Source: Amphibacillus jilinensis Y1 (GTDB lineage: Bacteria; Bacillota; Bacilli; Bacillales; Amphibacillaceae). From it: a stretch of DNA of 64,000 bases. Positions 1,684-54,077 of this stretch are shown piece after piece (positions within the stretch are counted from its first letter, which is position 1; each line of letters starts with the position of its first letter). Location: positions 1,021,807 to 1,085,806 of the forward strand of contig NZ_JH976434.1 of assembly GCF_000306965.1 (NCBI RefSeq), in the 5' to 3' direction. The notes under the pieces were generated by a model, which saw only the letters and a list, made by a program, of their open reading frames with translations, made no database searches and was not told the DNA's origin. A program made the position numbers and the translations under genes.

Positions 1684-4139
1684 AATACCTCTCCTTCCCC
1701 AGTTTTTGAAGTGCCAAATTCACCCTTATCCTTATTTAATTTTACCAGTTTTTTTCTTTCTCTTAACACATGTCGCATACCTTTAAAGAAATGTCCATTT
1801 ACAATCATCAGAACACCATCAACCATCGGCATATTGATCACGCCTCCCGTCATTCGTGCATAACCACGAAACGGCATATGATAGACAGACATCATAATCA
1901 AGTTTGCTGTATCTCTTTTTCCTATCTTCCATAAAAATTTATGAGAAAGTTTAATCAACTTAAATGCAAATCGAGCAAACAAGCCCTTCGCATATTGACA
2001 TTGCGCAATGGTATCGTTATAGCCCAGTGGCTTGTTTCTATCCCATTTAGGATCTGGTACCTTATGGCCAAGGAGAGTCTCAAACTCTTCGATACTAACA
2101 TCATTTACTTTTCCAGAATAATAAGATGGAAGCTTATCTTTATCATAGGGTAGCGGTGCTTCCGTCCCTTCTATGAAAATAACATCTTCTAAGCGAATAT
2201 CATCACTTGCTGCACCAATCATAATCTTATAATCAGCTGATTCAATCTCCCACTGGTTGGTTTTTACATTAAAATAACGAAATGTTTTATCATCAAATAA
2301 CAGGGTTACTGTTTTTGTTTCACCAGCATTTAAGTCGACTTTTATAAAGCCTTTTAATTCTTTATCCGGTCTAAAGATCGCTTTAGACTGACACCTCACA
2401 TATAGTTGGGCCACTTCTTTACCAGCAACTTCACCTGTATTTGTAATATTAAAGGTAACCCCTTCTTCACTCACTTTTATATCTGAATATCCAAACGACG
2501 TATAACTTAATCCGTAACCGAACGGAAAAAGAACATTAACATCAGCTGTATCATAATAACGATAACCAATATACGGACCTTCTCTGTACTCGACACTCAC
2601 TTCTTTACCAGGGAATTGATGAGAGGCTGGCGTGTCTTCATATCGAAGAGGATAAGTTTCTGCTAGCTTCCCTGAAGGATTGACTGCCCCAGTGATGATC
2701 CTTTGAACAGCCTTTGCCCCTGCCTGACCACTTAAATAAGCATGGACTAATCCTTTCACCTTAGTCATCCATGGCATCTCAACTGCTGCACCACAAGAAA
2801 GAACAACAACAATATTTGGATTCACCTCATACAAAGCATCCAATAATTCAATCTGATTCGCAGGAATGTCCATACTTTGGCGATCTAAGCCTTCTGCTTC
2901 TGTCACTTCATCCAAACCCATATACAATAGCACAACATCAGCTTGTTCTGCTAATGCACAGGCTTTATTTATTTTTCTTGTACTTCGCTTCCCATAGCGA
3001 TCAAATCCTTGCTCATAACCAATACTGTTTAGCTCAGTTTCCTCCAACAAATCTAATGGATGATCTAAAAACGTTGGATTAACAATTGACGAACCTGCGC
3101 CTTGGTATCTTGTTTCTCTGGCAAAATCTCCAATGACTGCGACTGTTTTATCCTGCTGAAGTGGGAGGATATTTGCTTCGTTTTTCAAAAGAATAATCGA
3201 TTCTTCTGCGACGCGTTGTGCCATCTGATGATGTTCTTTTTTATCAACGGTTTTAGGTTTTTGTTTAAAAGCTTTTTCTGTTGTGAAGACGAGGTCTAGT
3301 AGCCGATCAACACATTGATCTAGTACGTCCTCCTTTATTTCCCCACTCTCAATAGCTGTGACGATATCTTGATTGGTTTCACCAGCAGTTGTAGGCATTT
3401 CTAGCTCATTCCCTGCAATTAAACCAGCAACCCGCTCATTACTTCCACCCCAGTCTGTAACCACCACACCATCGTAATTCCAGTCATCCCTTAAAATTTG
3501 CTTCATTAAATCCATGTTTTCGTTCGTATATTCACCATTTAACTTATTATAAGCTGACATAACAGCCTTTGTTTCACCTTCTTTAACAGCCATTTCAAAT
3601 GCCGTTAAATACATTTCCCTAAGGGTTCTTTCATCGACAATGGTATCAATCGACATCCGCCGTTCTTCTTGGTTATTGACCGCAAAATGCTTTACACAAG
3701 CTGATATGCCGTAAGATTGAATTCCCTTAATCATTCCAGCCGCTAGTTTTCCAGCAAGATAAGGATCTTCACTAAAATATTCAAAATTACGCCCCGACAA
3801 GGGACTTCTCTTCATGTTGATTCCTGGTCCTAACAAAACATTAACTTTTTGCTCAACAGCCTCTTTTCCTAGGTAAGTACCCATTTGCATGGCAAGCTCC
3901 TCATTCCAACTATTCGCTACCGTTGCAGCTGTTGGAAAGCAAGTTGCCGGAATACTCTCATTAAGACCTAAGTGATCTGCCGCTTCCGCCTGCTTCCGAA
4001 TACCATGCGGACCATCGGCTAAGAAAATACTTGGAATACCCAGTCTTTCTATGTCCATCGTTTGCCAAAAATCTTTCCCGGACATCAAAGAGGCTTTTTC
4101 TTCACGGGTCATCTTGCTAATTATCTCTTTGTACTTCAT
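1680..4139 (-). CDS. GH3 beta-glucosidase-type glycoside hydrolase, cytoplasmic
   Basis: About 819 residues in the usual GH3 order: N-terminal barrel domain (residues 1-280), GH3 C domain (310-520) and a fibronectin III-like domain (560-650). The nucleophile is the Asp in VVVTDWGGSN near 230. SGRNFEYFSEDPYLAG and KHFAVNNQEERR are typical substrate-site motifs. There is no signal peptide, so it should act on imported oligosaccharides; beta-glucosidase or beta-xylosidase are both possible. A C-terminal tail of about 130 residues follows the Fn3 domain and is unassigned. The second ATG is chosen because GAGGG sits six bases before it, while it touches the first ATG. It overlaps the GtrA-like gene by 4 bases. 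Confidence 0.88.
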   Translation of the reverse strand: MKYKEIISKMTREEKASLMSGKDFWQTMDIERLGIPSIFLADGPHGIRKQAEAADHLGLNESIPATCFPTAATVANSWNEELAMQMGTYLGKEAVEQKVNVLLGPGINMKRSPLSGRNFEYFSEDPYLAGKLAAGMIKGIQSYGISACVKHFAVNNQEERRMSIDTIVDERTLREMYLTAFEMAVKEGETKAVMSAYNKLNGEYTNENMDLMKQILRDDWNYDGVVVTDWGGSNERVAGLIAGNELEMPTTAGETNQDIVTAIESGEIKEDVLDQCVDRLLDLVFTTEKAFKQKPKTVDKKEHHQMAQRVAEESIILLKNEANILPLQQDKTVAVIGDFARETRYQGAGSSIVNPTFLDHPLDLLEETELNSIGYEQGFDRYGKRSTRKINKACALAEQADVVLLYMGLDEVTEAEGLDRQSMDIPANQIELLDALYEVNPNIVVVLSCGAAVEMPWMTKVKGLVHAYLSGQAGAKAVQRIITGAVNPSGKLAETYPLRYEDTPASHQFPGKEVSVEYREGPYIGYRYYDTADVNVLFPFGYGLSYTSFGYSDIKVSEEGVTFNITNTGEVAGKEVAQLYVRCQSKAIFRPDKELKGFIKVDLNAGETKTVTLLFDDKTFRYFNVKTNQWEIESADYKIMIGAASDDIRLEDVIFIEGTEAPLPYDKDKLPSYYSGKVNDVSIEEFETLLGHKVPDPKWDRNKPLGYNDTIAQCQYAKGLFARFAFKLIKLSHKFLWKIGKRDTANLIMMSVYHMPFRGYARMTGGVINMPMVDGVLMIVNGHFFKGMRHVLRERKKLVKLNKDKGEFGTSKTGEGEVL

Positions 4140-4254
4140 CGACATCCCTCTTTTTTAGAAATTGGTGGCACTTTAATGACGTGCCACCAAACTCAAACTT
4201 TTTCTCGTACAGCTATTTGGTTATTATCTCACTAACATCTTTTAAGTTTGTTGT

Positions 4255-7125
4255 TCATCCCGTTGTAACATGTGCTTCACTTTCATTATTTTTTCTTCTA
4301 AACGTGTAGTAAAAGCCAGCCCCTATAGCTAAAAGAAGAAAGGCATCGACAATAATTGTAATAATAACCCATGTTGGCATTGTAGAACTTAAATCACCCT
4401 CAACACCTCTACTATTTGCAACCATATATAGGATATTATGTGATGCATCTCGCATCGCCCATAACGTATCATTACTGCTTGTATCGACCTCTGGCGCGCC
4501 CATCGGTGCAACACCGGTTAGCATCATGTCATTACCATTACGAATGGCTTGTTCATAGACCATATAAGGGTAGAAATCAATGATATACATGTCTGTGTTT
4601 ACTGTTCCTTGGAAGCCCCATTCATTGCGCAGGACTTCTTGAAGCAGACTTGAATTTGCCCCCGCCCAAACAGGTCCAATACTATTAAATCCAGACATAA
4701 CACCACTTGCGCCGCCTTCTTTTACAGCCATTTCAAAAGGCTTCAAATACACATCTCGCATCGCTTGCTCATTGCTCCAAGTTAGCACGGCATTGGTTCT
4801 ATTTTCTTCTTGATCATTTAATGCAAAGTGCTTCATATAGACAAATCCACCTTGACTCTCATAACCACTGATCGTGCCCGCTGCCATTTTACCCGAGATT
4901 AACGGATCTTCTGAATAATACTCAAAGTTTCTTCCACTAAATGCGGTACGGTGAATATTGATTCCTGGGGCATACCAACCTGTGGTGCCATAAGCTACAC
5001 CTTCTGCACCTACAGCTTCACCCATCCTTTCGGCAAGCTCAATATTCCATGTCGATGCCAGCACCACGCCGGCTGGAAAAGCAATACCAGCTACGGGTGA
5101 GTTAGAAATGTAGGCTGTAATCCCTGAGGGACCATCATAGTCCACTGTTGCCGGCTTGCCAACAGATTCAATTTCATATGTTCGATAACCACCTAATGTT
5201 GTCAGATCAACGAGATCATCTACTGACATCTGATCTAATAACTCATCCCATTGCTCATCATCGTAGTCTACACCAGTGAGATCAGCGAGTGTTAAGCCAT
5301 TATCTGCATTGGTAGTAGGCGCGTCCGAATAGGTGTCTTCCGGAATGTTATATCTAGCAGCATTAACCATATCTACAAAGCTACTTTCTACTAACTTTCC
5401 TCTTAACGTCTCGGTCTCGCCATCTGAATTGGTAACCGCAAATTCTTCGTGGTTAACTAGCTGATCCAAATTTTCAAAGCCATTTTCCCTTGAAAGATAT
5501 GTGTCGATACTGCCCTCGCCCGTAACAAAATCATCAAATTGGTTTATAGGGGCTTGTAAATCAGTAGAACGGCCGGACTCGAACACGACTTCTGACAGCT
5601 CTCTAGACTCTATTTCTTCAATGACTTCATGAGAGTTATCCATAAGGTAAATCGTGTATTCTCCTTCTTCTAGCACATAGGCTCCGGTATCGCTATATAC
5701 CCCGTTATGATCGAAAGCAGCCATATCCTCTGTGTTGTAGGAGATAGTGACCGTTTCAGATTCACCCGGTTCAATCATGCCTGTTTTCTCAAATGCAACT
5801 AAATCTCTAGCTGATCTTTCAATGTTACCTGTATATGGTGCAGAATAGTAGGTTTGTACGACTTCTTTCCCAGCCACAGAGCCTGTATTTGTAACCATCA
5901 CATCAAAGGAAACCTCTGTATCATCCCAGTTTAAACTTCCATCAACTACTTCTTGCTCAAATGTTGTGTAGCTTAGTCCATATCCAAATGGAAATTGCAC
6001 GTCATTATAGTAATCAATGACACCTTCATCTGCTGCTGTTTCATAATATCGATGTCCCACATAAATGCCTTCTGTGTAATCAACATATTTTAAAGGAACG
6101 CCAGCTTGATCCATCGCTTGTTCGTAAGATCCATCTTCCGTTTCAACAATGTAATTGAAATCACCAAAATTCGTTATTGCTGGTGCATCAAGAAGATCTC
6201 TAGTATAGATATCTACTGTTCTCCCAGAAGGATTGACTTCTCCGGACAATATTTTCCCTAACGAATTAAAACCACTTTGTCCAGGCCCTCCAATTGACAC
6301 AACACTTTTAATTTCACTGTAATCTTCTACCCAACTAAGTTCGAGAGTATTGCTACTGTTTACAACAACGACCACATCATCAAAATGTTCTGTAACGATG
6401 TCAACCATATCTTGTTCCCGATTACTTAATTGTAAATAGTGTTTAGTTGGGTCAAGATCATCTTCGTAACCATAGCGACTACCCGTAGAGTAAAAATCGC
6501 CCTCTCCGAAAGTATCTGGACCATCCATAACTCTTGGAAGATCAGAACCTTCACCACCAGAACGGGCAATAAAAATGATTGCTGTATCTGAAAAGGACGT
6601 TGCTTGTTGCATCCGTTCCTCAGTATAAAATTCTGCAGCAATAGGTTCCGGAATCGTCCAGTCTTGATCATTCATTTCAACCTCTGGTCTTTCATCTTGA
6701 AAAGCAATGTAGTCCTCATATAATGCTTCATTTATTTCAAACCCTGCATTTTCCAGACCTTTTCTTGGTGTTACTGTCGTTTCAGCATTCACACCACCAG
6801 AACCCGTCCCTCCATATACAGGATGGGTAAAGCTCCAACCGAAAACGCTTACTTTTTCGTTGCTATCTGTTGTTGAAATTGGCAACATATCTTCATTGTT
6901 TTGCAGCAGAACTATACCTTCATCAGCTATTTGTTCTGCAACAATTTCTGATTGCTTCCTAGCTTCAATGGCTTCCGGACTTTCGATATCAATTTCATTA
7001 AAAAACTCTGTAACAACGTCTGAATAATAAGCTAGTGCTACATTACCTGCAACTCCAATTAGCAGTACTAACGATAAAATCACACTTATTATGACGCGAA
7101 ATCTTTTCTTACTTTTCCTAGACAT
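4255..7125 (-). CDS. Membrane-anchored GH3 glycosidase with permuted domain order
   Basis: A 956-residue surface enzyme. It opens with a basic stretch and a hydrophobic segment (residues 8-32, signal anchor) and ends with a second span (about 920-942) followed by FRRKNNE. Between them the GH3 domains come in reverse order: C domain first (VFGWSFTHPVYGGTGSGG near 75), then Fn3-like (PFGYGLSYTTF near 380), then the N-terminal barrel domain (residues 620-890) with SGRNFEYYSEDPL, KHFALNDQEENR and the likely nucleophile Asp in TVNTDMYIIDFY. This reversed order is known in a minority of GH3 proteins. The start is set by AAGGAGG before the ATG at 7125; a longer in-frame start has no such site. A cre-like box lies upstream. 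Confidence 0.88.
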   Translation of the reverse strand: MSRKSKKRFRVIISVILSLVLLIGVAGNVALAYYSDVVTEFFNEIDIESPEAIEARKQSEIVAEQIADEGIVLLQNNEDMLPISTTDSNEKVSVFGWSFTHPVYGGTGSGGVNAETTVTPRKGLENAGFEINEALYEDYIAFQDERPEVEMNDQDWTIPEPIAAEFYTEERMQQATSFSDTAIIFIARSGGEGSDLPRVMDGPDTFGEGDFYSTGSRYGYEDDLDPTKHYLQLSNREQDMVDIVTEHFDDVVVVVNSSNTLELSWVEDYSEIKSVVSIGGPGQSGFNSLGKILSGEVNPSGRTVDIYTRDLLDAPAITNFGDFNYIVETEDGSYEQAMDQAGVPLKYVDYTEGIYVGHRYYETAADEGVIDYYNDVQFPFGYGLSYTTFEQEVVDGSLNWDDTEVSFDVMVTNTGSVAGKEVVQTYYSAPYTGNIERSARDLVAFEKTGMIEPGESETVTISYNTEDMAAFDHNGVYSDTGAYVLEEGEYTIYLMDNSHEVIEEIESRELSEVVFESGRSTDLQAPINQFDDFVTGEGSIDTYLSRENGFENLDQLVNHEEFAVTNSDGETETLRGKLVESSFVDMVNAARYNIPEDTYSDAPTTNADNGLTLADLTGVDYDDEQWDELLDQMSVDDLVDLTTLGGYRTYEIESVGKPATVDYDGPSGITAYISNSPVAGIAFPAGVVLASTWNIELAERMGEAVGAEGVAYGTTGWYAPGINIHRTAFSGRNFEYYSEDPLISGKMAAGTISGYESQGGFVYMKHFALNDQEENRTNAVLTWSNEQAMRDVYLKPFEMAVKEGGASGVMSGFNSIGPVWAGANSSLLQEVLRNEWGFQGTVNTDMYIIDFYPYMVYEQAIRNGNDMMLTGVAPMGAPEVDTSSNDTLWAMRDASHNILYMVANSRGVEGDLSSTMPTWVIITIIVDAFLLLAIGAGFYYTFRRKNNESEAHVTTG

Positions 7126-47874: not shown

Positions 47875-48674
47875 TTGATCACTCCTCTTCCCTACTTTAT
47901 TCACCATTATTATACACGCTTTACTACTTTAAGCAAAAAAAATTAGTATTTTGTTTAACTTCCTGTTCGATAAACTAAGCGTCCTCTTTAACATAAAAGG
48001 TGTTGTAAAAATACTTTTTCACTCACGGAAATAAAAGCATTCTAATTTAAGATTTCAGCAGTTTTAGTAAAATTTAGTGCCTGACTTGCGACTTGAAAAG
48101 CAGTCAATTAAATATCGACTTAATGTGCCGCTCCCTTTATATCTAGCTATCGTTATCTATCCTCTATTGAAACGTTAGCATAAAATCCATTCAGAAGCAC
48201 TAACACAGCAGAAAGTGAACTGATTGTGACAAAAACGTTACATTTAAACCCATTTTTATAAATTTATAACGAAAAAGCAGGATATCTAACCTTTTATATC
48301 GAATGTTAAATTATTACTTTAATATAGATGAGATTTCATGAGTCAAAAGTTTTTTGATTTTATTCAGCACAGAGCTACTAAAGACCAATTGATAGATCTT
48401 TAGAGGCGTCAAAGTCAGAAATACCAAAGACCAGTATCTTTAGAACTATAAATAATAATAATAATTCCATTTTTACGTAAAATTAACAAAATAAATATTT
48501 ACAAATATAGAAAATACATGTAAACTATACTCAAAGGTGAGTTGAGATAACATAAGGCTATTAAACTCATATTTAATCATAAGATCAACTTGTCTAATTA
48601 AAAGCAAAGCAAAATTGATTTCGCAGCTTGAAGGGCTTCGTTTTCATTTCTTTGTCTTGCATTAGGAGGTGATT
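47875..48674. other. 800-base non-coding region upstream of the peptide locus
   Basis: No supported gene on either strand. It holds two similar boxes, CTAAAGACCA...TCTTTAG at 48378-48403 and CCAAAGACCAGTATCTTTAG at 48424-48443, each with inverted ends AAAGA/TCTTT. A promoter candidate for the peptide gene is TTTACA (48498-48503), 17 bases, TAAACT (48521-48526). The rest is AT-rich with no clear structure. Confidence 0.5.
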
Positions 48675-48743
48675 ATGATGAAAAAAGTGACAGTGCGTAG
48701 AGCAGTTAAAGTTGAAGCAACAGCTTGGTGGATCGTTTTCTAA
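48675..48743 (+). CDS. 22-residue RiPP precursor peptide candidate
   Basis: Two consecutive ATG codons follow AGGAGGTGATT, a perfect match to the 16S rRNA tail; the second ATG is eight bases from it. The peptide begins MKK, has Arg-Arg at 8-9 and ends EATAWWIVF, then TAA. It is basic at the front and aromatic/hydrophobic at the back. A strong hairpin follows and then the gene for an E1-like adenylating enzyme. This size and layout recall MccA/MccB of microcin C and the yydF precursor, but MccA peptides end in Asn whereas this ends in Phe. I infer a substrate for the E1-like enzyme. Confidence 0.75.
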   Translation: MMKKVTVRRAVKVEATAWWIVF

Positions 48744-48762
48744 GATGATTTCGTGTAAAGAA

Positions 48763-48808
48763 ATAAAAACAAAATTGAGGTTCTTAGTAGCCTCAATTTT
48801 GTTTTTAT
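48763..48808 (+). terminator. Attenuator hairpin between precursor and enzyme genes
   Basis: AAAAACAAAATTGAGG and CCTCAATTTTGTTTTT (extended by two A/T pairs on the outside) give an 18-bp perfect stem with a ten-base loop. The T-rich 3' arm acts as terminator tail. It lies 20 bases after the peptide stop and 24 bases before the enzyme's ATG, so most transcripts would carry only the peptide, as is common when a precursor must outnumber its enzyme. Confidence 0.85.
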
Positions 48809-48831
48809 AAGTCATTTTTTTGGAGGCTAAG

Positions 48832-49980
48832 ATGAATAATAAATACAACAATCCTCGTATTAAACCAATTTATCCTTTGTATCGTCTTAACAAAGAAGAG
48901 TTCAGAATTGGTGCACAATTAGGAATTACGGCCGAATTTGGAGATCCAGATGGTCACTTATGGGAATTAGCTTCGCGCTTAGATGGAAGAAATCTTGAAC
49001 ATGTGATTAAAGATATGATAGAAACCTTCCCTGAGTTATCACGAAAAGATATTATAGAAGGTATTGATTTATTAAACAATGAAGGATTCTTAGAGGAAAC
49101 CTTTGACAAGAAAAATGACGAAATTCCACAACGTTATATGGCAAATGTAAATTATTTCAGCAGATATATAGGAACTGACGGTAATCGTTTTGACATACAA
49201 CGGAAAATGAGCGAAACAACGATTCTACTGTTGGGTCTTGGCGGTGGGGGCTCGAATATACTGACGCTACTATCTGGACTTGGTCCAAAAAAAATTATTA
49301 TTGTAGATTACGATAAGGTAGAAGAAAGCAACCTTGGGAGACAATTGTTGTATAAAGAGTCTGATATCGGTTCACCTAAATGCCAAGCAGCAGCAAGAGC
49401 TATTTCACAAATGAATGCTCAACTGGAAATTGAAGCACATAATGTGATGATTAAATCAGCTGAAGATGTCTTAAGATTTACAGATGGTGTAGACTTAGTC
49501 ATTTGTGCTATAGATGAACCACCATTTGTTGCCCAACGTATCGTCAATCAAGCCATAATTAAAGCAAATGTACCTTGTGTTTTTGGCGCCTCTCAAGTTA
49601 GTCGTGGAAGAGTTTTTACGGTCATACCAGGGAAAACAGGTTGTTTTGATTGTTTAAACCTTCATTACAGTTTAAATGATCCACAATTTATAGAGCAGTT
49701 TGTTGCTTTTAGAAATATTAATTTTGACCCGCCTACAATAGCTTATGCACCCGCTATCTATCAATTGACTGCGGCAATTGTAGATGAAGCAGTCAGGCTT
49801 ATAACAGGATACGCACCACCGAGAAGTCTAAGTACGCAATATGAGGTTAATTTTGAAGATGGCTCTTCATTCACTCATCCATCTTGGAAAAGGTATGCAG
49901 ATAAGTGTCCAACATGTGGTGAGGGCGATGCCAAGAATTGGGAAATTTTTAGCTATTACGAGACCGCGAACAAGGTGTGA
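48832..49980 (+). CDS. E1/ThiF-like adenylating enzyme with N-terminal clamp domain
   Basis: A 382-residue enzyme. Residues 10-90 (YPLYRLNKEEFRIGAQLG to NNEGFLEE) look like a winged-helix peptide-binding domain as in RiPP-modifying ThiF/MccB proteins. The E1 domain follows: ATP loop LLLGLGGGGSN near 130, DYDKVEESNLGRQLLY near 158, the Lys in IGSPKCQAA, and the metal-site Asp in VICAIDEPP. Two Cys pairs, GCFDC near 270 and CPTC near 365, probably bind zinc. By family it should adenylate the C-terminal carboxylate of a peptide, presumably the one encoded upstream. GGAGG precedes the ATG. Confidence 0.85.
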   Translation: MNNKYNNPRIKPIYPLYRLNKEEFRIGAQLGITAEFGDPDGHLWELASRLDGRNLEHVIKDMIETFPELSRKDIIEGIDLLNNEGFLEETFDKKNDEIPQRYMANVNYFSRYIGTDGNRFDIQRKMSETTILLLGLGGGGSNILTLLSGLGPKKIIIVDYDKVEESNLGRQLLYKESDIGSPKCQAAARAISQMNAQLEIEAHNVMIKSAEDVLRFTDGVDLVICAIDEPPFVAQRIVNQAIIKANVPCVFGASQVSRGRVFTVIPGKTGCFDCLNLHYSLNDPQFIEQFVAFRNINFDPPTIAYAPAIYQLTAAIVDEAVRLITGYAPPRSLSTQYEVNFEDGSSFTHPSWKRYADKCPTCGEGDAKNWEIFSYYETANKV

Positions 49981-49986
49981 CTTCTA

Positions 49987-50880
49987 ATGATGACGGAATA
50001 TGACCTTAAACCCGTATCTGTTAGACAATTAAAAAATGGCATGTGGATTGTATTAGCAGAAGATACAACTCCACTTGTAGTCGATGAGGCGTTCGCTAGG
50101 GCTTTGACCGAGCATGGTGCACTAAGCGCGTATGATGATGCACTATCTATTTTAAAGGATAATGGTTTTTATAAAGAAGTTTCTAGCGAAATAAAATCGC
50201 TCCCCAAAGAACCTAGCAGTTTAAATTGGAAAATCAGCATGTATCTGCTTTTTATTATAGGTTTAATGTCTGCGATGGTTGCATTTATATTAACAGCTTT
50301 CAATGGCTTATTTACTGGGATCGACATTATGAATGCACCCACTCCTGTCTTTATTACTATACCTTTTATCATTATATTTTCATTAGCAACAACATTGGTT
50401 CATGAGTTTATGCATGTCGTATTTGCACGCTCACATCGGTCTATGTTTGGCGGGATCCGTTTGAAATTTCTTCAAGCCAAAGCCTATGTTTCAATGACTC
50501 ATATTTGGGTTTGGCCTTTGACAGCAAGACTCGCAGCTTTATCAGCTGGATTAGTCTTTGATTTTTTTCTGTTAGCTAGCCTGCTCATTATTCAATTGTT
50601 TACAACAAATGGATTATTGGCTACAGCTATTTCTATTCAATGGTTACGAATCACTTGGCAGTTCCGTTTTCATAAAAATTGTGATGGACAGCTTATGGCA
50701 TTATCGATTTTAGACAACCCAACAGTAGCGATAGAAAAGACTGATCATTCAATTCGTGATGTTCGTATGTGGAGGCGTTTTGAAATAATAGGACATCTTG
50801 TTAACCTATTTATTTTTATATACTGGATTTTCCCTTTATTATGGATGTTAACTGCAAACCTATTTAATTTTTTTTCTTAA
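49987..50880 (+). CDS. Membrane zinc metalloprotease (M50-like, YydH-like)
   Basis: A 297-residue protein with a soluble N-terminal part of about 75 residues that looks like another small winged-helix-type domain, then five or six membrane spans. The zinc motif HEFMHVVFA lies in span 3 near residue 138, and KNCDGQLMALSILDNP near 235 resembles the second metal-site motif (NxDG) of site-2-type proteases. Such proteases occur in RiPP loci such as yydFGHIJ and may cut or release the modified peptide in the membrane. It begins six bases after the enzyme gene stop. Confidence 0.75.
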   Translation: MMTEYDLKPVSVRQLKNGMWIVLAEDTTPLVVDEAFARALTEHGALSAYDDALSILKDNGFYKEVSSEIKSLPKEPSSLNWKISMYLLFIIGLMSAMVAFILTAFNGLFTGIDIMNAPTPVFITIPFIIIFSLATTLVHEFMHVVFARSHRSMFGGIRLKFLQAKAYVSMTHIWVWPLTARLAALSAGLVFDFFLLASLLIIQLFTTNGLLATAISIQWLRITWQFRFHKNCDGQLMALSILDNPTVAIEKTDHSIRDVRMWRRFEIIGHLVNLFIFIYWIFPLLWMLTANLFNFFS

Positions 50881-50911
50881 TAAATGTATCAGGACAATAT
50901 AAATAAGAAAT

Positions 50912-51874
50912 ATGGTGAGAACAAGAATGAATAAGCAGAAAACCAGCATAAAAAGCCTAGAAATTAAATCACTATCAAAGTCTTATAAACGTGGTAGTGT
51001 AAAAGCTAACCGTGATATTTCAGCTTCCTTTAATCCAAATGAAATTGTAGCAATTATTGGTCATAATGGCGCTGGAAAAACAACACTATTAAATCAAATT
51101 ATCGGGATTGCCAAACCTGACCAGGGTGACATCACGTTTGAAGGTCAATCTTTTATTGATAACACAAAACTAGCTAGAAACCTTGTGTCGATGATGCCCC
51201 AATTCCACGCCCCTTTAGCAGGTGTTACGTTAAGACAGTCCATCTCCTCTGTTCTTTTAATTCGGGGGATTTCAGGGGATCAAAATAAACGCTATGTGAA
51301 TGCAATTTTAAATGACTTAAAGATTGAACAATGGGCCGATCGTTCAGGAGATAAGCTTTCAGGTGGTTTACAACGTTTAGCTTCATTTGCAATGGCGGTT
51401 GTCTGCCCACCCCCGATTATTTTGCTAGATGAGCCCACTAATGATGTTGATCCTGTTAGGAGAAAACTGGTTTGGAGCTATATGAAAAAGCTAGCGAAAA
51501 AAGGACATATTGTCATTGTTGTTACACATAATTTATTAGAAGTTGAACAATATGCCGATCGCTTCTTATTATTTGATCATGGACAACTTATTAAAGATGA
51601 GGCGACCGGCGAGCAGAACAGACCCTTTGCATTAAATACGCTCACAGTTATTTTAAATGATTGGAATGATGTATCAAACTTACCCAAAGCTATGGATACG
51701 CAATATTTAGAAGATGACTTGCAAGTTGTTATTACACTGTCAGCAGAACAAGTTCCTGTTGCGATAGATTGGGTATTAGCCTTAATAAGCGAGCGGAAAA
51801 TTGTTAATTATAAATTGACTTCAGCATCATTGGAAGTTTCATATGGGGGATTAACAGATGGAAACGAAAAATAA
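50912..51874 (+). CDS. ABC transporter ATPase with C-terminal extension
   Basis: A 320-residue ATPase: Walker A IIGHNGAGKTT near 50, signature LSGGLQRLASFAMAV near 150, Walker B IILLDEPTNDVD near 172, H loop VVVTHN. The last 80 residues form a separate domain as in CcmA/DrrA-type drug and peptide exporters. The start may be ATG 50912 or ATG 50927; neither has a strong ribosome binding site. It overlaps the permease gene by 17 bases, and the pair likely exports the peptide or protects the producer. Confidence 0.88.
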   Translation: MVRTRMNKQKTSIKSLEIKSLSKSYKRGSVKANRDISASFNPNEIVAIIGHNGAGKTTLLNQIIGIAKPDQGDITFEGQSFIDNTKLARNLVSMMPQFHAPLAGVTLRQSISSVLLIRGISGDQNKRYVNAILNDLKIEQWADRSGDKLSGGLQRLASFAMAVVCPPPIILLDEPTNDVDPVRRKLVWSYMKKLAKKGHIVIVVTHNLLEVEQYADRFLLFDHGQLIKDEATGEQNRPFALNTLTVILNDWNDVSNLPKAMDTQYLEDDLQVVITLSAEQVPVAIDWVLALISERKIVNYKLTSASLEVSYGGLTDGNEK

Positions 51875-52637
51875 TGTAATCTTACACCATGGAGGAGATG
51901 GGGTATTATTTAATCTAAAGAAGCTTTGGGGGCTAATTCGCTGGAGTTTAATCAGGCATAAATATTTGTTACCAACATTTAGTATTGTACAAGCAGCGTT
52001 TGCTTTAGCTATTGTTTACGGTCTAGCCTTACTAATCCCTGACGAGAGCCAGACTACAGCGATGTATTTATCGTCAGGCGCCATCTCGCTCGGTATTATC
52101 GCAGTCGGGTGTGTCTTAGCACCACAAATCGTCAGTACAGCAAAGCAAGAAGGTATTACCAAATATCAACGCACATTGCCAGTCACCCGATCCGCACTGC
52201 TGTTTGCTGATATTGCCATATGGTGCGTGGCCTCGTTACCTGGTGTGTTCATGGGATGTCTGGCGGCTATCCTTCGTTTTGATATTACGCTAGACATAAC
52301 GCTATTAAGCTTCCTAATCATTGTCATTGCTCAACTAACGATGATTTGTATTGGGTTTGCGATTGCTTATGCTTTTCCACCAAATGTAATGGCTCTAGTG
52401 ACGCAATTAATCATGCTTGGAGGATTGCTTTTTTCTCCAATCACTTACCCTATCGATCGATTACCGGAGTGGACGACTTATATTTATCAATCCATGCCCT
52501 TCGTACCGATAACTAATTTATTGCGTTCTACATTGTTTAACTATGGCCTCTTTTCTTTAATCGATCTAGTTGTTGCTATATTATGGGCCATTCTCGGTTT
52601 CTCACTATCTCTTTTCGCACTTTCCAGAAGGGAATAA
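51858..52637 (+). CDS. ABC-2 type permease
   Basis: A 259-residue membrane protein with six predicted spans after a short cytoplasmic N terminus. ITKYQRTLPVTRSALLFADI near 95-115 and PITYPIDRLPEW near 195 match ABC-2 exporters. It pairs with the ATPase encoded before it. The stop codon overlaps the ATG of the next ATPase (TAATG), so the whole set is one operon. Confidence 0.85.
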   Translation: METKNNVILHHGGDGVLFNLKKLWGLIRWSLIRHKYLLPTFSIVQAAFALAIVYGLALLIPDESQTTAMYLSSGAISLGIIAVGCVLAPQIVSTAKQEGITKYQRTLPVTRSALLFADIAIWCVASLPGVFMGCLAAILRFDITLDITLLSFLIIVIAQLTMICIGFAIAYAFPPNVMALVTQLIMLGGLLFSPITYPIDRLPEWTTYIYQSMPFVPITNLLRSTLFNYGLFSLIDLVVAILWAILGFSLSLFALSRRE

Positions 52638-53377
52638 TGATCATGACACCTATTACAATTTCTAATCTGCAAAAATTTATTAATGCTAAACCGATTATAA
52701 AAGTCGCTAATTTTGATGTAGCAGAAGGTGAAATTTGTGCACTTATCGGGCCGAACGGGGTAGGGAAAACCACTTTACTTAAATGTTTATTAGGTCTAGT
52801 TAAACCCGATCAAGGAACGATTAAAATAAATGATACCATTCTTACAGAAACAACACGTCCTGAAATATTAAAGGCGATTGGAACAGTCTTTCAATTTCCA
52901 CCAAACATTTCTGACATGACCATCTCTGAACTTCTTAATCAACATTTTAATTATCTTAAATTAGACATGCCAGACTCTTATGTACAGCTTTTAAAGGTTA
53001 CTGAACTAGACGTGCCACTTACAACAAAAGTAGGGAAATTGTCATTAGGTATGAAACGGCGGCTTCAACTGACCATGGCACTTGCTCACCAGCCTAAAAT
53101 ACTAATATTGGATGAGCCTTTTAATGGCCTTGATATTGACGGAATAAATTTAATAAAAAATATCCTAACTGATTTGAGAAAAAAAGATATCTGTATAATG
53201 GTCACAAGCCACTCTCTATCAGAACTTGAAGAATTTGTTTCTAGTGTTGTATTTATGCTGAATGGTGAAACTTGTGAAAAACAATACCTTGAGCACATAA
53301 AGAAAGAATATGCTGGAGGTCTTCAGGCGTATTATCAAATAAAAAAGGAAGAATTTAAAAATGAAAAAAAATTATAG
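52637..53377 (+). CDS. Second ABC transporter ATPase
   Basis: A 246-residue ATPase: Walker A LIGPNGVGKTT near 37, signature LSLGMKRRLQLTMAL near 135, Walker B ILILDEPFNGLD, H loop VTSHS. The short type (no C-terminal domain) resembles immunity ATPases such as BcrA or LanF. AGAAGGG lies before the ATG at 52637; upstream in-frame codons lie within the permease gene. It likely teams with the permease encoded next. Confidence 0.88.
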   Translation: MIMTPITISNLQKFINAKPIIKVANFDVAEGEICALIGPNGVGKTTLLKCLLGLVKPDQGTIKINDTILTETTRPEILKAIGTVFQFPPNISDMTISELLNQHFNYLKLDMPDSYVQLLKVTELDVPLTTKVGKLSLGMKRRLQLTMALAHQPKILILDEPFNGLDIDGINLIKNILTDLRKKDICIMVTSHSLSELEEFVSSVVFMLNGETCEKQYLEHIKKEYAGGLQAYYQIKKEEFKNEKKL

Positions 53378-54077
53378 CTTTGAAGTTTCTCAACTTAAGA
53401 AGTATAGATTAGTTATTTTCTCAATAGCTTTTTTTACGCAGCTCTTATTTCTTTATTTTTTCACGATCGTTGGCCGGTTTGATAGCGCTGAATCGGATGA
53501 TATACTGAGGAATTACATAAGCCTATCAGGCTTAGCTTCTACGATTTCGATGTGTATGCTCGTTGTTTACGGAACGGTTATTGTCAATCGGTTTCTTGTA
53601 AAAAATTATATTGGTGAAAATAAAGCAAGATTATACGCATATCCAGTCGGACGTTCACAACTATTCCATACTAAAGTCACAGCTTTTCTCAGTACATTTT
53701 TTATCTTTCAATTGTTAGGCATAAGTCTATCTAATATTCTGTTTCTAATCACAGAAACACTATTCCCGATCCTTGATACTGCACAACCGGCTGTAGTGTA
53801 TCTCGTTGAATTTTTTGTCACTGCAATCGCAACGGTCGTACTTACTATTTCGATCATCTTTCTTTCAAGTATTGTCGGCATTCATTTAAATTCCACCGTA
53901 GCCACTATGGTTACAGGCATCATCTTGATTGTTATCTTTGGAAATATCCTAGCAATGGCGTTTGTCAGTAATTTACTTATTACCTTAAGCTCTGCAATTT
54001 TAATTGCAGTTATCACTGGTATTGCGATCAAAATAACCGGATCGAAAATTGATAAAGAAGATGTGCTTACACGGTAA
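53361..54077 (+). CDS. Second ABC permease (immunity-type)
   Basis: A 238-residue protein with six predicted spans. It begins MKKNYSFEVSQLKKYRL and has RLYAYPVGRSQLFHTKVTAF near 85, as in ABC-2/LanE-like permeases. The gene overlaps the ATPase gene by 17 bases, with AAGGAAG as ribosome binding site, and ends the operon before a hairpin. Having two different ATPase/permease pairs suggests one for export and one for self-protection. Confidence 0.8.
   Translation: MKKNYSFEVSQLKKYRLVIFSIAFFTQLLFLYFFTIVGRFDSAESDDILRNYISLSGLASTISMCMLVVYGTVIVNRFLVKNYIGENKARLYAYPVGRSQLFHTKVTAFLSTFFIFQLLGISLSNILFLITETLFPILDTAQPAVVYLVEFFVTAIATVVLTISIIFLSSIVGIHLNSTVATMVTGIILIVIFGNILAMAFVSNLLITLSSAILIAVITGIAIKITGSKIDKEDVLTR

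What the first reader, a model, noticed from the sequence alone, without database searches (positions are those of the whole stretch)
48675..54077. Candidate undescribed RiPP system: tiny peptide, E1-like enzyme, membrane protease and two ABC pairs
Seen: a 22-codon gene with a perfect ribosome binding site, then an E1/ThiF-like enzyme with a clamp-like N-terminal domain, an HExxH membrane protease and two ATPase/permease pairs, all co-oriented and overlapping. Known: MccB (microcin C) and PaaA (pantocin) are E1-like enzymes acting on short peptides, and yydFGHIJ combines a precursor, modifying enzyme, M50-like protease and ABC exporter. Inference: this is a hybrid layout with an E1-like enzyme in the yyd role and a Phe-terminated precursor, unlike Asn-terminated MccA. 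The chemistry could be C-terminal adenylation, nucleotide attachment or cyclisation.
Basis: partly seen in the sequence, partly recalled or inferred. Interest (0 to 1): 0.92.

Follow-up and report, generated by a model that had tools for sequence, protein, structure and literature searches.

The report
Enterofaecin-type cyclic peptide gene cluster
This stretch holds the genes for a tiny peptide and the machinery that probably ties its tail into a ring, cuts it and exports it; it belongs to a recently described family known from lactic acid bacteria, found here in a Bacillus-like relative, and comparing its members suggests that the ring closes on a tryptophan, which can be tested directly.

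Summary
A 21/22-codon gene (48675-48743, MMKKVTVRRAVKVEATAWWIVF) with an AGGAGGTG ribosome-binding site precedes a terminator-like hairpin, an RRE-ThiF enzyme, an M50/YydH-like membrane protease and two ABC pairs. The peptide is conserved: of 18 loci with close ThiF (window included) 17 carry it whole, one keeps only the leader; against the nearest homolog 7 of 8 changed codons are synonymous. The RiPP reading is right, but "undescribed" is not: this is the enterofaecin (EnfA/EnfB) type, reported from Lactobacillales in 2024. One fetched locus matches published EnfA/EnfB by length, motif and residue numbers (Trp17, Trp18, Ile19; Arg167, Lys180, Asp225), and the window matches it gene for gene. 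New here: members in Bacillales, a Phe terminus, and evidence on chemistry. In 15 distinct precursors only Met1, Val6, Arg7 and Trp(-4) never vary; Trp(-4) is where IndA forms its Trp-to-C-terminus indolylamide. Three IndF residues that mutagenesis tied to activity have equivalents in 11 of 11 close enzymes and 0 of 44 others. I predict an indolylamide (Trp18 N1 to Phe21), not the published imide. A wider set of ThiF plus RRE-M50 systems with tandem precursors sharing this leader occurs across Bacilli.

The parts
48664..48671 (+). ribosome-binding site AGGAGGTG of the precursor gene
   Evidence: sequence read directly
48675..48743 (+). precursor peptide gene (EnfA-like), MMKKVTVRRAVKVEATAWWIVF; 21 residues from the second Met; leader motif VRRA, predicted core EATAWWIVF
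   Evidence: homologs at all 17 other close loci examined, one of them reduced to the leader; 7 of 8 changed codons synonymous against L039
48763..48808 (+). terminator-like hairpin (20-pair stem, 6-nt loop) between precursor and enzyme genes; perhaps keeps precursor transcripts in excess
   Evidence: its function is inferred
48832..49980 (+). RRE-ThiF adenylyltransferase (EnfB-like), 382 aa; Arg170, Lys183, Asp228 align with Arg167, Lys180, Asp225 of L154 (the EnfB numbers); Phe232, Arg260, Thr302 align with IndF-type Tyr228, Lys256, Thr298
49987..50880 (+). membrane metalloprotease with HExxH (His139, Glu140, His143) and Asp233; YydH/LiaK-like, homologous to RRE(PqqD)-M50 proteases of the wider set
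50912..51874 (+). ABC ATPase 1 (DrrA-like), probable exporter ATPase; its pair is found in all 18 close clusters
51858..52637 (+). ABC-2 permease 1, partner of ATPase 1
52637..53377 (+). ABC ATPase 2 (best NCBIfam model: lantibiotic-protection ATPase, below that model's cut-off); longest frame starts at 52583, likely start 52637 or 52643
   Evidence: immunity role inferred
53361..54077 (+). ABC permease 2, no family match; a 98% identical copy remains at the same site in a sister species that lost most of the cluster

Best explanation
The locus is an enterofaecin-type ThiF-RiPP cluster. The 21/22-residue precursor is bound through its VRRA leader motif by the N-terminal RRE of the EnfB-like enzyme. 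The ThiF domain uses ATP to adenylate the carboxylate of the C-terminal Phe21, and the indole nitrogen of Trp18, three residues back, attacks it, giving a Trp18-Phe21 indolylamide macrocycle with loss of water. The membrane M50/YydH-like protease then cuts the leader, most likely just before Glu13 (core EATAWWIVF, as IndP does in IndA). ABC pair 1 exports the product; ABC pair 2 probably protects the producer. Shown by computation: cluster anatomy, conserved precursor, RRE-ThiF architecture, membership of the EnfA/EnfB-like clade, invariant Trp(-4), shared active-site residues. Inferred: the indole linkage, the cleavage site, the transporter roles and an antimicrobial or signalling use. (Family membership alone I put at about 0.93; the confidence given is for the whole statement with the indole linkage.)
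For: Gene-for-gene correspondence with L154, whose ThiF has Arg167/Lys180/Asp225 and whose precursor MKKVNVRKADTVDATAWWIVI has Trp17, Trp18, Ile19, the numbers the review gives for EnfB/EnfA. 11-member clade, SH-aLRT 99% and 98%. In 15 distinct precursors Trp(-4) is 15 of 15, Trp(-5) 10 of 15 (Arg, Leu or Ser in 5), Ile(-3) 11 of 15. IndA joins Trp6 to Ile9, the same -4/-1 spacing. IndF Tyr228, Lys256 and Thr298, whose Ala mutants substantially lost activity, correspond to aromatic, basic and Thr/Ser in 11 of 11 close enzymes and in 0 of 44 other RRE-ThiFs. Asp/Glu sits at -9 in 10 of 15 precursors; the S. equi IndP cuts IndA before the Glu at -9. The fold is that of MccB/PaaA.
Against: The published assignment for EnfB is an imide on the Ile19 backbone nitrogen, said to rest on MS and NMR (review); [quoted passage not shown] Trp(-4) could be invariant for binding alone: the review calls both Trp17 and Trp18 crucial for substrate binding and activity. 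IndF-type L145 is only about 27% identical, sits on a long branch, and the Ind cluster uses an M16 protease. L145 is identified as IndF-type by five residue numbers and its precursor core, not by name. The natural Trp17Arg variant (L155) lies in a cluster whose ATPase 2 is a fragment and whose permease 2 was not found, so that peptide could be decaying. No enzyme-peptide complex could be modelled here.
Confidence: 0.65

Rival explanations
1. Same cluster and family, but the enzyme closes the ring as the published enterofaecin imide: the backbone nitrogen of residue 19 attacks the activated C-terminus.
For: Reported for EnfB from MS and NMR according to the review. A backbone NH exists whatever residue is at -3, so variation there does not exclude it.
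Against: A backbone amide is a very poor nucleophile (general chemistry, recalled). It gives no direct reason for Trp(-4) to be invariant while Trp(-5) varies, nor for the IndF residues near Trp6 and Ile9 to be kept. The Org Lett paper calls the structure unsettled.
Confidence: 0.17
2. The enzyme activates the C-terminus but passes it to an outside amine, so the natural product is a C-terminally amidated or conjugated linear peptide.
For: EnfB amidates the C-terminus when amines are supplied (review). No amine donor would need to be encoded.
Against: No amine-supplying or transferase gene was recognised in the cluster; invariant Trp(-4) is left unexplained.
Confidence: 0.1
3. A microcin C-like Trojan horse: a nucleotide is attached to the C-terminus.
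For: Closest solved structures are MccB, about 21% identity in the fold alignment.
Against: MccB acts on a C-terminal Asn through a succinimide (review passages); here the terminus is Phe, Ile or Val in 15 of 15. No genes for nucleotide decoration were recognised.
Confidence: 0.04
4. On function (not exclusive of the chemistry above): the product is a secreted signal (pheromone-like) rather than an antimicrobial.
For: The review suggests quorum sensing because regulators lie in the Enterococcus cluster; a response-regulator receiver protein lies near the end of L001 (read by eye).
Against: No regulator was recognised beside the window cluster. In 6 of 18 close loci ThiF is broken (best single-frame coverage 29-81%) while homologs of ABC1/PERM1 remain, a pattern expected of retained immunity. 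ATPase 2 is closest to lantibiotic-protection ATPases.
Confidence: 0.35

Closest known systems
Enterofaecin (enf) cluster of Enterococcus faecalis, EnfA/EnfB (ACS Omega 2024, not read; seen through review PMC12250964 and PMC12150305)
   Same: 21-residue precursor with a WWIV-x end and a (V/I)R(K/R)A leader, RRE-ThiF with the same Arg/Lys/Asp, four transporter proteins; L154, which matches the published numbering, also has the HExxH protease
   Different: window ends in Phe not Ile, has VRRA not VRKA, lies in Bacillales, has no recognised regulators beside it; ThiF 63% identical to L154's
Ind indolylamide RiPP of Streptococcus pneumoniae, IndA/IndF/IndP (PMC12150305)
   Same: Trp at -4, hydrophobic C-terminus, acidic residue at -9, RRE-ThiF with aromatic/basic/hydroxyl residues at IndF 228/256/298
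   Different: about 27% identity to the IndF-type L145, longer acidic leader, M16 protease instead of M50/YydH-like
Epipeptide yydFGHIJ (Bacillus subtilis; PMC7026026, abstract and passages)
   Same: short precursor, membrane protease of the YydH/LiaK type, ABC transporter postulated to protect
   Different: modifying enzyme is a radical SAM epimerase there, ThiF here
Microcin C (MccA/MccB) and pantocin A (PaaA)
   Same: RRE fused to ThiF adenylation domain; same overall fold
   Different: C-terminal Asn plus nucleotide (MccA) or internal Glu-Glu chemistry (PaaA substrate); here a Trp-x-x-Phe C-terminus

Membership tests
Enterofaecin-type ThiF-RiPP | 21-residue precursor with C-terminal WWIII/WWIVI motif | tested here: met
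   MKKVTVRRAVKVEATAWWIVF from the second Met; WWIVF, so Phe for the last Ile
Enterofaecin-type ThiF-RiPP | leader motif (V/I)RKA | tested here: met
   VRRA in the window (Lys to Arg); VR in 15 of 15 distinct precursors, then R 5, K 9, E 1
Enterofaecin-type ThiF-RiPP | RRE-ThiF with Arg167, Lys180, Asp225 | tested here: met
   window Arg170, Lys183, Asp228 align with Arg167/Lys180/Asp225 of L154; RRE-type N-domain by fold. These residues are general to the ThiF set
Enterofaecin-type ThiF-RiPP | four transporter proteins | tested here: met
   two ATPase/permease pairs, homologous and in the same order as in L154
Enterofaecin-type ThiF-RiPP | regulatory genes in the cluster | tested here: not met
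   none recognised next to the window cluster (by reading); mentioned by the review for E. faecalis but not a chemical hallmark, so not taken as excluding
Enterofaecin-type ThiF-RiPP | product cyclised at the C-terminus | not testable with these tools
   needs enzyme assay and NMR
Ind (indolylamide) RiPP | Trp at -4 and the residues Tyr228, Lys256, Thr298 | tested here: met
   aligned Phe232, Arg260, Thr302: same side-chain type, one of three identical
Ind (indolylamide) RiPP | M16 protease IndP | tested here: not met
   M50/YydH-like HExxH membrane protease instead
Epipeptide (yyd) | radical SAM epimerase | tested here: not met
   no radical-SAM match or CxxxCxxC frame seen in the cluster
Microcin C | precursor ends in Asn | tested here: not met
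   ends in Phe; Phe/Ile/Val in 15 of 15
Pantocin | Glu-Glu core with follower | tested here: not met
   single Glu, no Glu-Glu

The most novel reading that the evidence does not exclude
Enterofaecin-type enzymes, this one included, are indolylamide synthases that close a Trp(-4) N1 to C-terminal carboxylate ring, so the published imide structure is wrong; and they are one branch of a much larger set in Bacilli in which an RRE-ThiF enzyme and an RRE-M50 membrane protease act on short, often tandem precursors that share one leader (V/I-x-V/A-K/R-K/R) but carry quite different C-terminal cores, each probably closed by a different bond.
Probability: 0.5. Interest if true: 0.65.

Novelty: new member of a known kind. 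Interest (0 to 1): 0.5.

Why it matters
It takes the enterofaecin type outside the lactic acid bacteria (the window's genome and a Niallia taxi megaplasmid, among others) and turns an open structural question (imide or indolylamide) into a one-peptide assay, because natural variants already separate Trp17 from Trp18. According to PMC12150305, N-acylindole rings were unknown in ribosomal peptides before IndF; an enzyme that makes them on a 21-mer would be a useful cyclisation tool. The shared leader of the wider ThiF plus RRE-M50 set offers a simple genome-mining handle for many peptides that look uncharacterised.

Tried and rejected
Housekeeping MoeB/ThiF: rejected; the own genome has one match at E <= 0.001, the N-terminal domain is MccB/PaaA-like and the neighbours read as a mannose PTS and a Nudix gene (by reading). 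Anti-phage E1-E2 systems: PADLOC models match only the ThiF part. Viral carriage: none found in viral contigs; 6 phage records give partial matches to the E1 domain. Solved structure for the protease: Foldseek found nothing at E <= 0.001 and a profile search nothing at E <= 0.1. The M50 and PqqD assignments rest on relatives: at E <= 0.05, 17 and 15 of the 32 proteases scanned (32 of the 37 found); 10 of 32 match the daptide HExxH model and 4 the YydH/LiaK model; profile comparison of close against wide proteases gives 97.8%. Pfam gives no RRE match for the window's own ThiF or protease, so those RRE labels rest on fold and homology. Recent insertion of the cluster: rejected; the sister species keeps a remnant at the same site. 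Promoter scan: 27 sites against 23.5 in shuffles, so no promoter is claimed.

Limits of the counts. The leader pattern was written after seeing the peptides; 47 of 66 loci against 2 of 66 on the reverse strand is a specificity check, not a blind test, and several of the 66 are near-copies. The 8 control loci gave 0 hits, but one (L030) is the same place as L129 of the 66, so 7 are independent controls. Not every hit was fetched: 21 of the 32 places listed and 23 of the 27 were, near-copies being skipped. The ThiF table holds 56 rows; before it I dropped L112, L130, L131, L134, L136, L137, L138, L146 and L147 (stops, fragments or copies) and never included L156 and L157, and the tree also leaves out L002, L003, L129 and L142 (long branches).

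Literature: review PMC12250964 read in part (abstract and introduction; sections 12, 14, 17, 20, 26; passages); PMC12150305 whole main text, no supplement; PMC7026026 abstract and passages. The primary enterofaecin paper (ACS Omega 2024, PMC11256085) is not held, so its claims are taken from the other two. Searches aimed at the wider ThiF-protease set; nothing describing it was seen in the listings of this open library, which lacks most subscription journals.
Full report
What is there. The window holds, on the + strand, a 21/22-codon gene (48675-48743) with the ribosome-binding site AGGAGGTG, a terminator-like hairpin of 20 pairs (48763-48808), an RRE-ThiF gene (48832-49980), an HExxH membrane-protein gene (49987-50880), and two ATPase/permease pairs up to 54077. 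The neighbours, a mannose PTS with a small gene on one side and a Nudix gene on the other, look unrelated (by reading).

The small gene is real. A search of public genomes found a 68% identical enzyme in Lactococcus ileimucosae (L001). I examined 18 close loci, the window included. The peptide gene lies upstream of ThiF in all of them; in one (L156) only the leader is left, because a deletion runs from the core to the ThiF start. Between the window and L039, 7 of 8 changed codons are synonymous. The type is rare: at E <= 1e-100, 2 of 397 genomes of the order, 2 of 398 of the class, 7 of 295 of the family of G441 and 6 of 395 of the order of G441.

What it is. The review PMC12250964 describes enterofaecin: a 21-residue EnfA with WWIVI, a (V/I)RKA leader motif, EnfB with Arg167, Lys180 and Asp225, and four transporter proteins. 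The window matches L154 in gene order, all six large genes included. The window and ten other W(-4)-type enzymes form one clade (SH-aLRT 99%, 98%). Membership is therefore well supported (about 0.93).

How it works. The AF2 model (pLDDT 93.5) matches MccB (query TM about 0.75 over about 360 columns) and PaaA, so leader binding by the N-terminal domain and ATP-driven activation of the C-terminus follow from family knowledge. The question is the nucleophile. The review says the Ile19 backbone nitrogen (imide); PMC12150305 says that the enterofaecin structure needs more NMR, and shows by NMR that the related IndF joins Trp6 N1 to the C-terminal Ile9. Aligned from the right, the 15 distinct close precursors keep Trp at -4 in 15 of 15; Trp at -5 is present in 10 and replaced by Arg, Leu or Ser in 5; position -3 is Ile in 11, Val in 2 and Gly in 2. 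IndA has its reacting Trp at the same -4. Locus L145 encodes the core EDTTNWYFI, and its ThiF has Gln167, Lys179, Tyr228, Lys256 and Thr298, the residues and numbers published for IndF. Tyr228, Lys256 and Thr298, which lie near the core in the authors' model and are needed for activity, correspond to Phe/Tyr, Arg and Thr/Ser in 11 of 11 close enzymes; the triple is found in 0 of 44 other RRE-ThiFs of the same survey. The simplest reading is one chemistry: an indolylamide between Trp18 and the C-terminal residue. Against this stand the published imide and the possibility that Trp18 only helps binding; the review reports that both Trp matter in EnfA.

Cutting and export. The membrane protein has HExxH plus a later invariant Asp (His139, Glu140, His143, Asp233), matches the YydH/LiaK model weakly (E 8e-6; 3 of 9 close members match at E <= 0.05), and is homologous to longer proteases of the wider set (hhalign 97.8%). 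Of 32 proteases scanned, 17 match Pfam M50 and 15 match PqqD, the RRE-type domain, at E <= 0.05; the window protein itself matches neither. The S. equi IndP cuts IndA before the Glu at -9; the window has Glu at -9. All 12 loci of the long type (W(-4) with the 21-residue precursor or its remnant) have a protease match (a fragment in L146; the match covers 40% in L131, whose frame has HExxH). All 12 have ABC pair 1, and 11 have both members of pair 2 at least in part: ATPase 2 is in pieces in L132 and L146, and in L155 it is a fragment and permease 2 was not found. The 6 loci of the short Streptococcus type (no Trp at -5) have only ABC pair 1 and no protease match. Pair 1 is therefore the probable exporter and pair 2 probably protective. 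In 6 of 18 loci ThiF is broken (single-frame coverage 29-81%) while pair 1 persists. The sister species G1338 keeps at the same site a 39-nt piece of the protease end, the ATPase 2 tail and a 98% identical permease 2, so the cluster is ancestral there and was mostly lost.

The wider set. Among 66 RRE-ThiF loci, 47 have an upstream short ORF with a leader like MKIxVKKxEKLxPT or VxVRRAxKV, against 2 of 66 on the reverse strand and 0 of 8 control ThiF loci, one of which turned out to be the same place as one of the 66 (pattern written after seeing the peptides, some loci near-copies, not all hits fetched). At least nine loci carry three to six tandem precursors with varied C-terminal ends, and 37 of 46 loci scanned hold an HExxH membrane protease in the fetched stretch. 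[quoted passage not shown] whether this subset is described I could not establish.

Verdict. What is worth following is the prediction about its ring bond and the wider set.

Noticed in passing
L055, L056, L128, L058, L120, L052, L054, L057, L126, L044, L045, L047, L048, L051 and others: RRE-ThiF with an HExxH membrane protease nearby and one to six short precursors sharing a leader (for example MKIEVKKTEKLKPT, MKKIVVRKLETVSVPQ, MKIQAKKVEMVRTT) but very different C-terminal ends; several end in PYGG, others have two Cys near the end (L046, L049, L117).
   Followed up: partly
L166 (sister species G1338), about 3663-4660: Remnant of the window cluster at the same site: 39 nt of the protease end, ATPase 2 tail, and a whole permease 2 at 98% identity; the rest was not found.
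   Followed up: yes
L156, minus strand about 8510-8455: A deletion joins the precursor gene just after the leader to the start of ThiF; the core is gone and ThiF is also broken, while protease and ABC matches remain.
   Followed up: partly
L111, L133, L134, L135, L136, L137: Short Streptococcus-type clusters with precursors ending LWVVF, SWGVF, SWGII or SWVIV, one ABC pair and no protease match; ThiF broken in L135, L136, L137.
   Followed up: partly
G441: L111 and L147: One unnamed Streptococcaceae-like genome carries both a short W(-4) cluster and an Ind-like precursor ending NTTNWYFI with a shortened ThiF frame.
   Followed up: no
L041, L042, L043: RRE-ThiF with short K-x-K-K-type precursors followed by a 9-11-TM transporter-like protein instead of the HExxH protease.
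   Followed up: no
L143, L144: RRE-ThiF loci with a 45-residue upstream peptide (DPGPAN near its end) and an HExxH membrane protein about 3 kb downstream.
   Followed up: no
window 48675-48680: Two consecutive ATG codons start the precursor; homologs support either 21 or 22 residues.
   Followed up: partly
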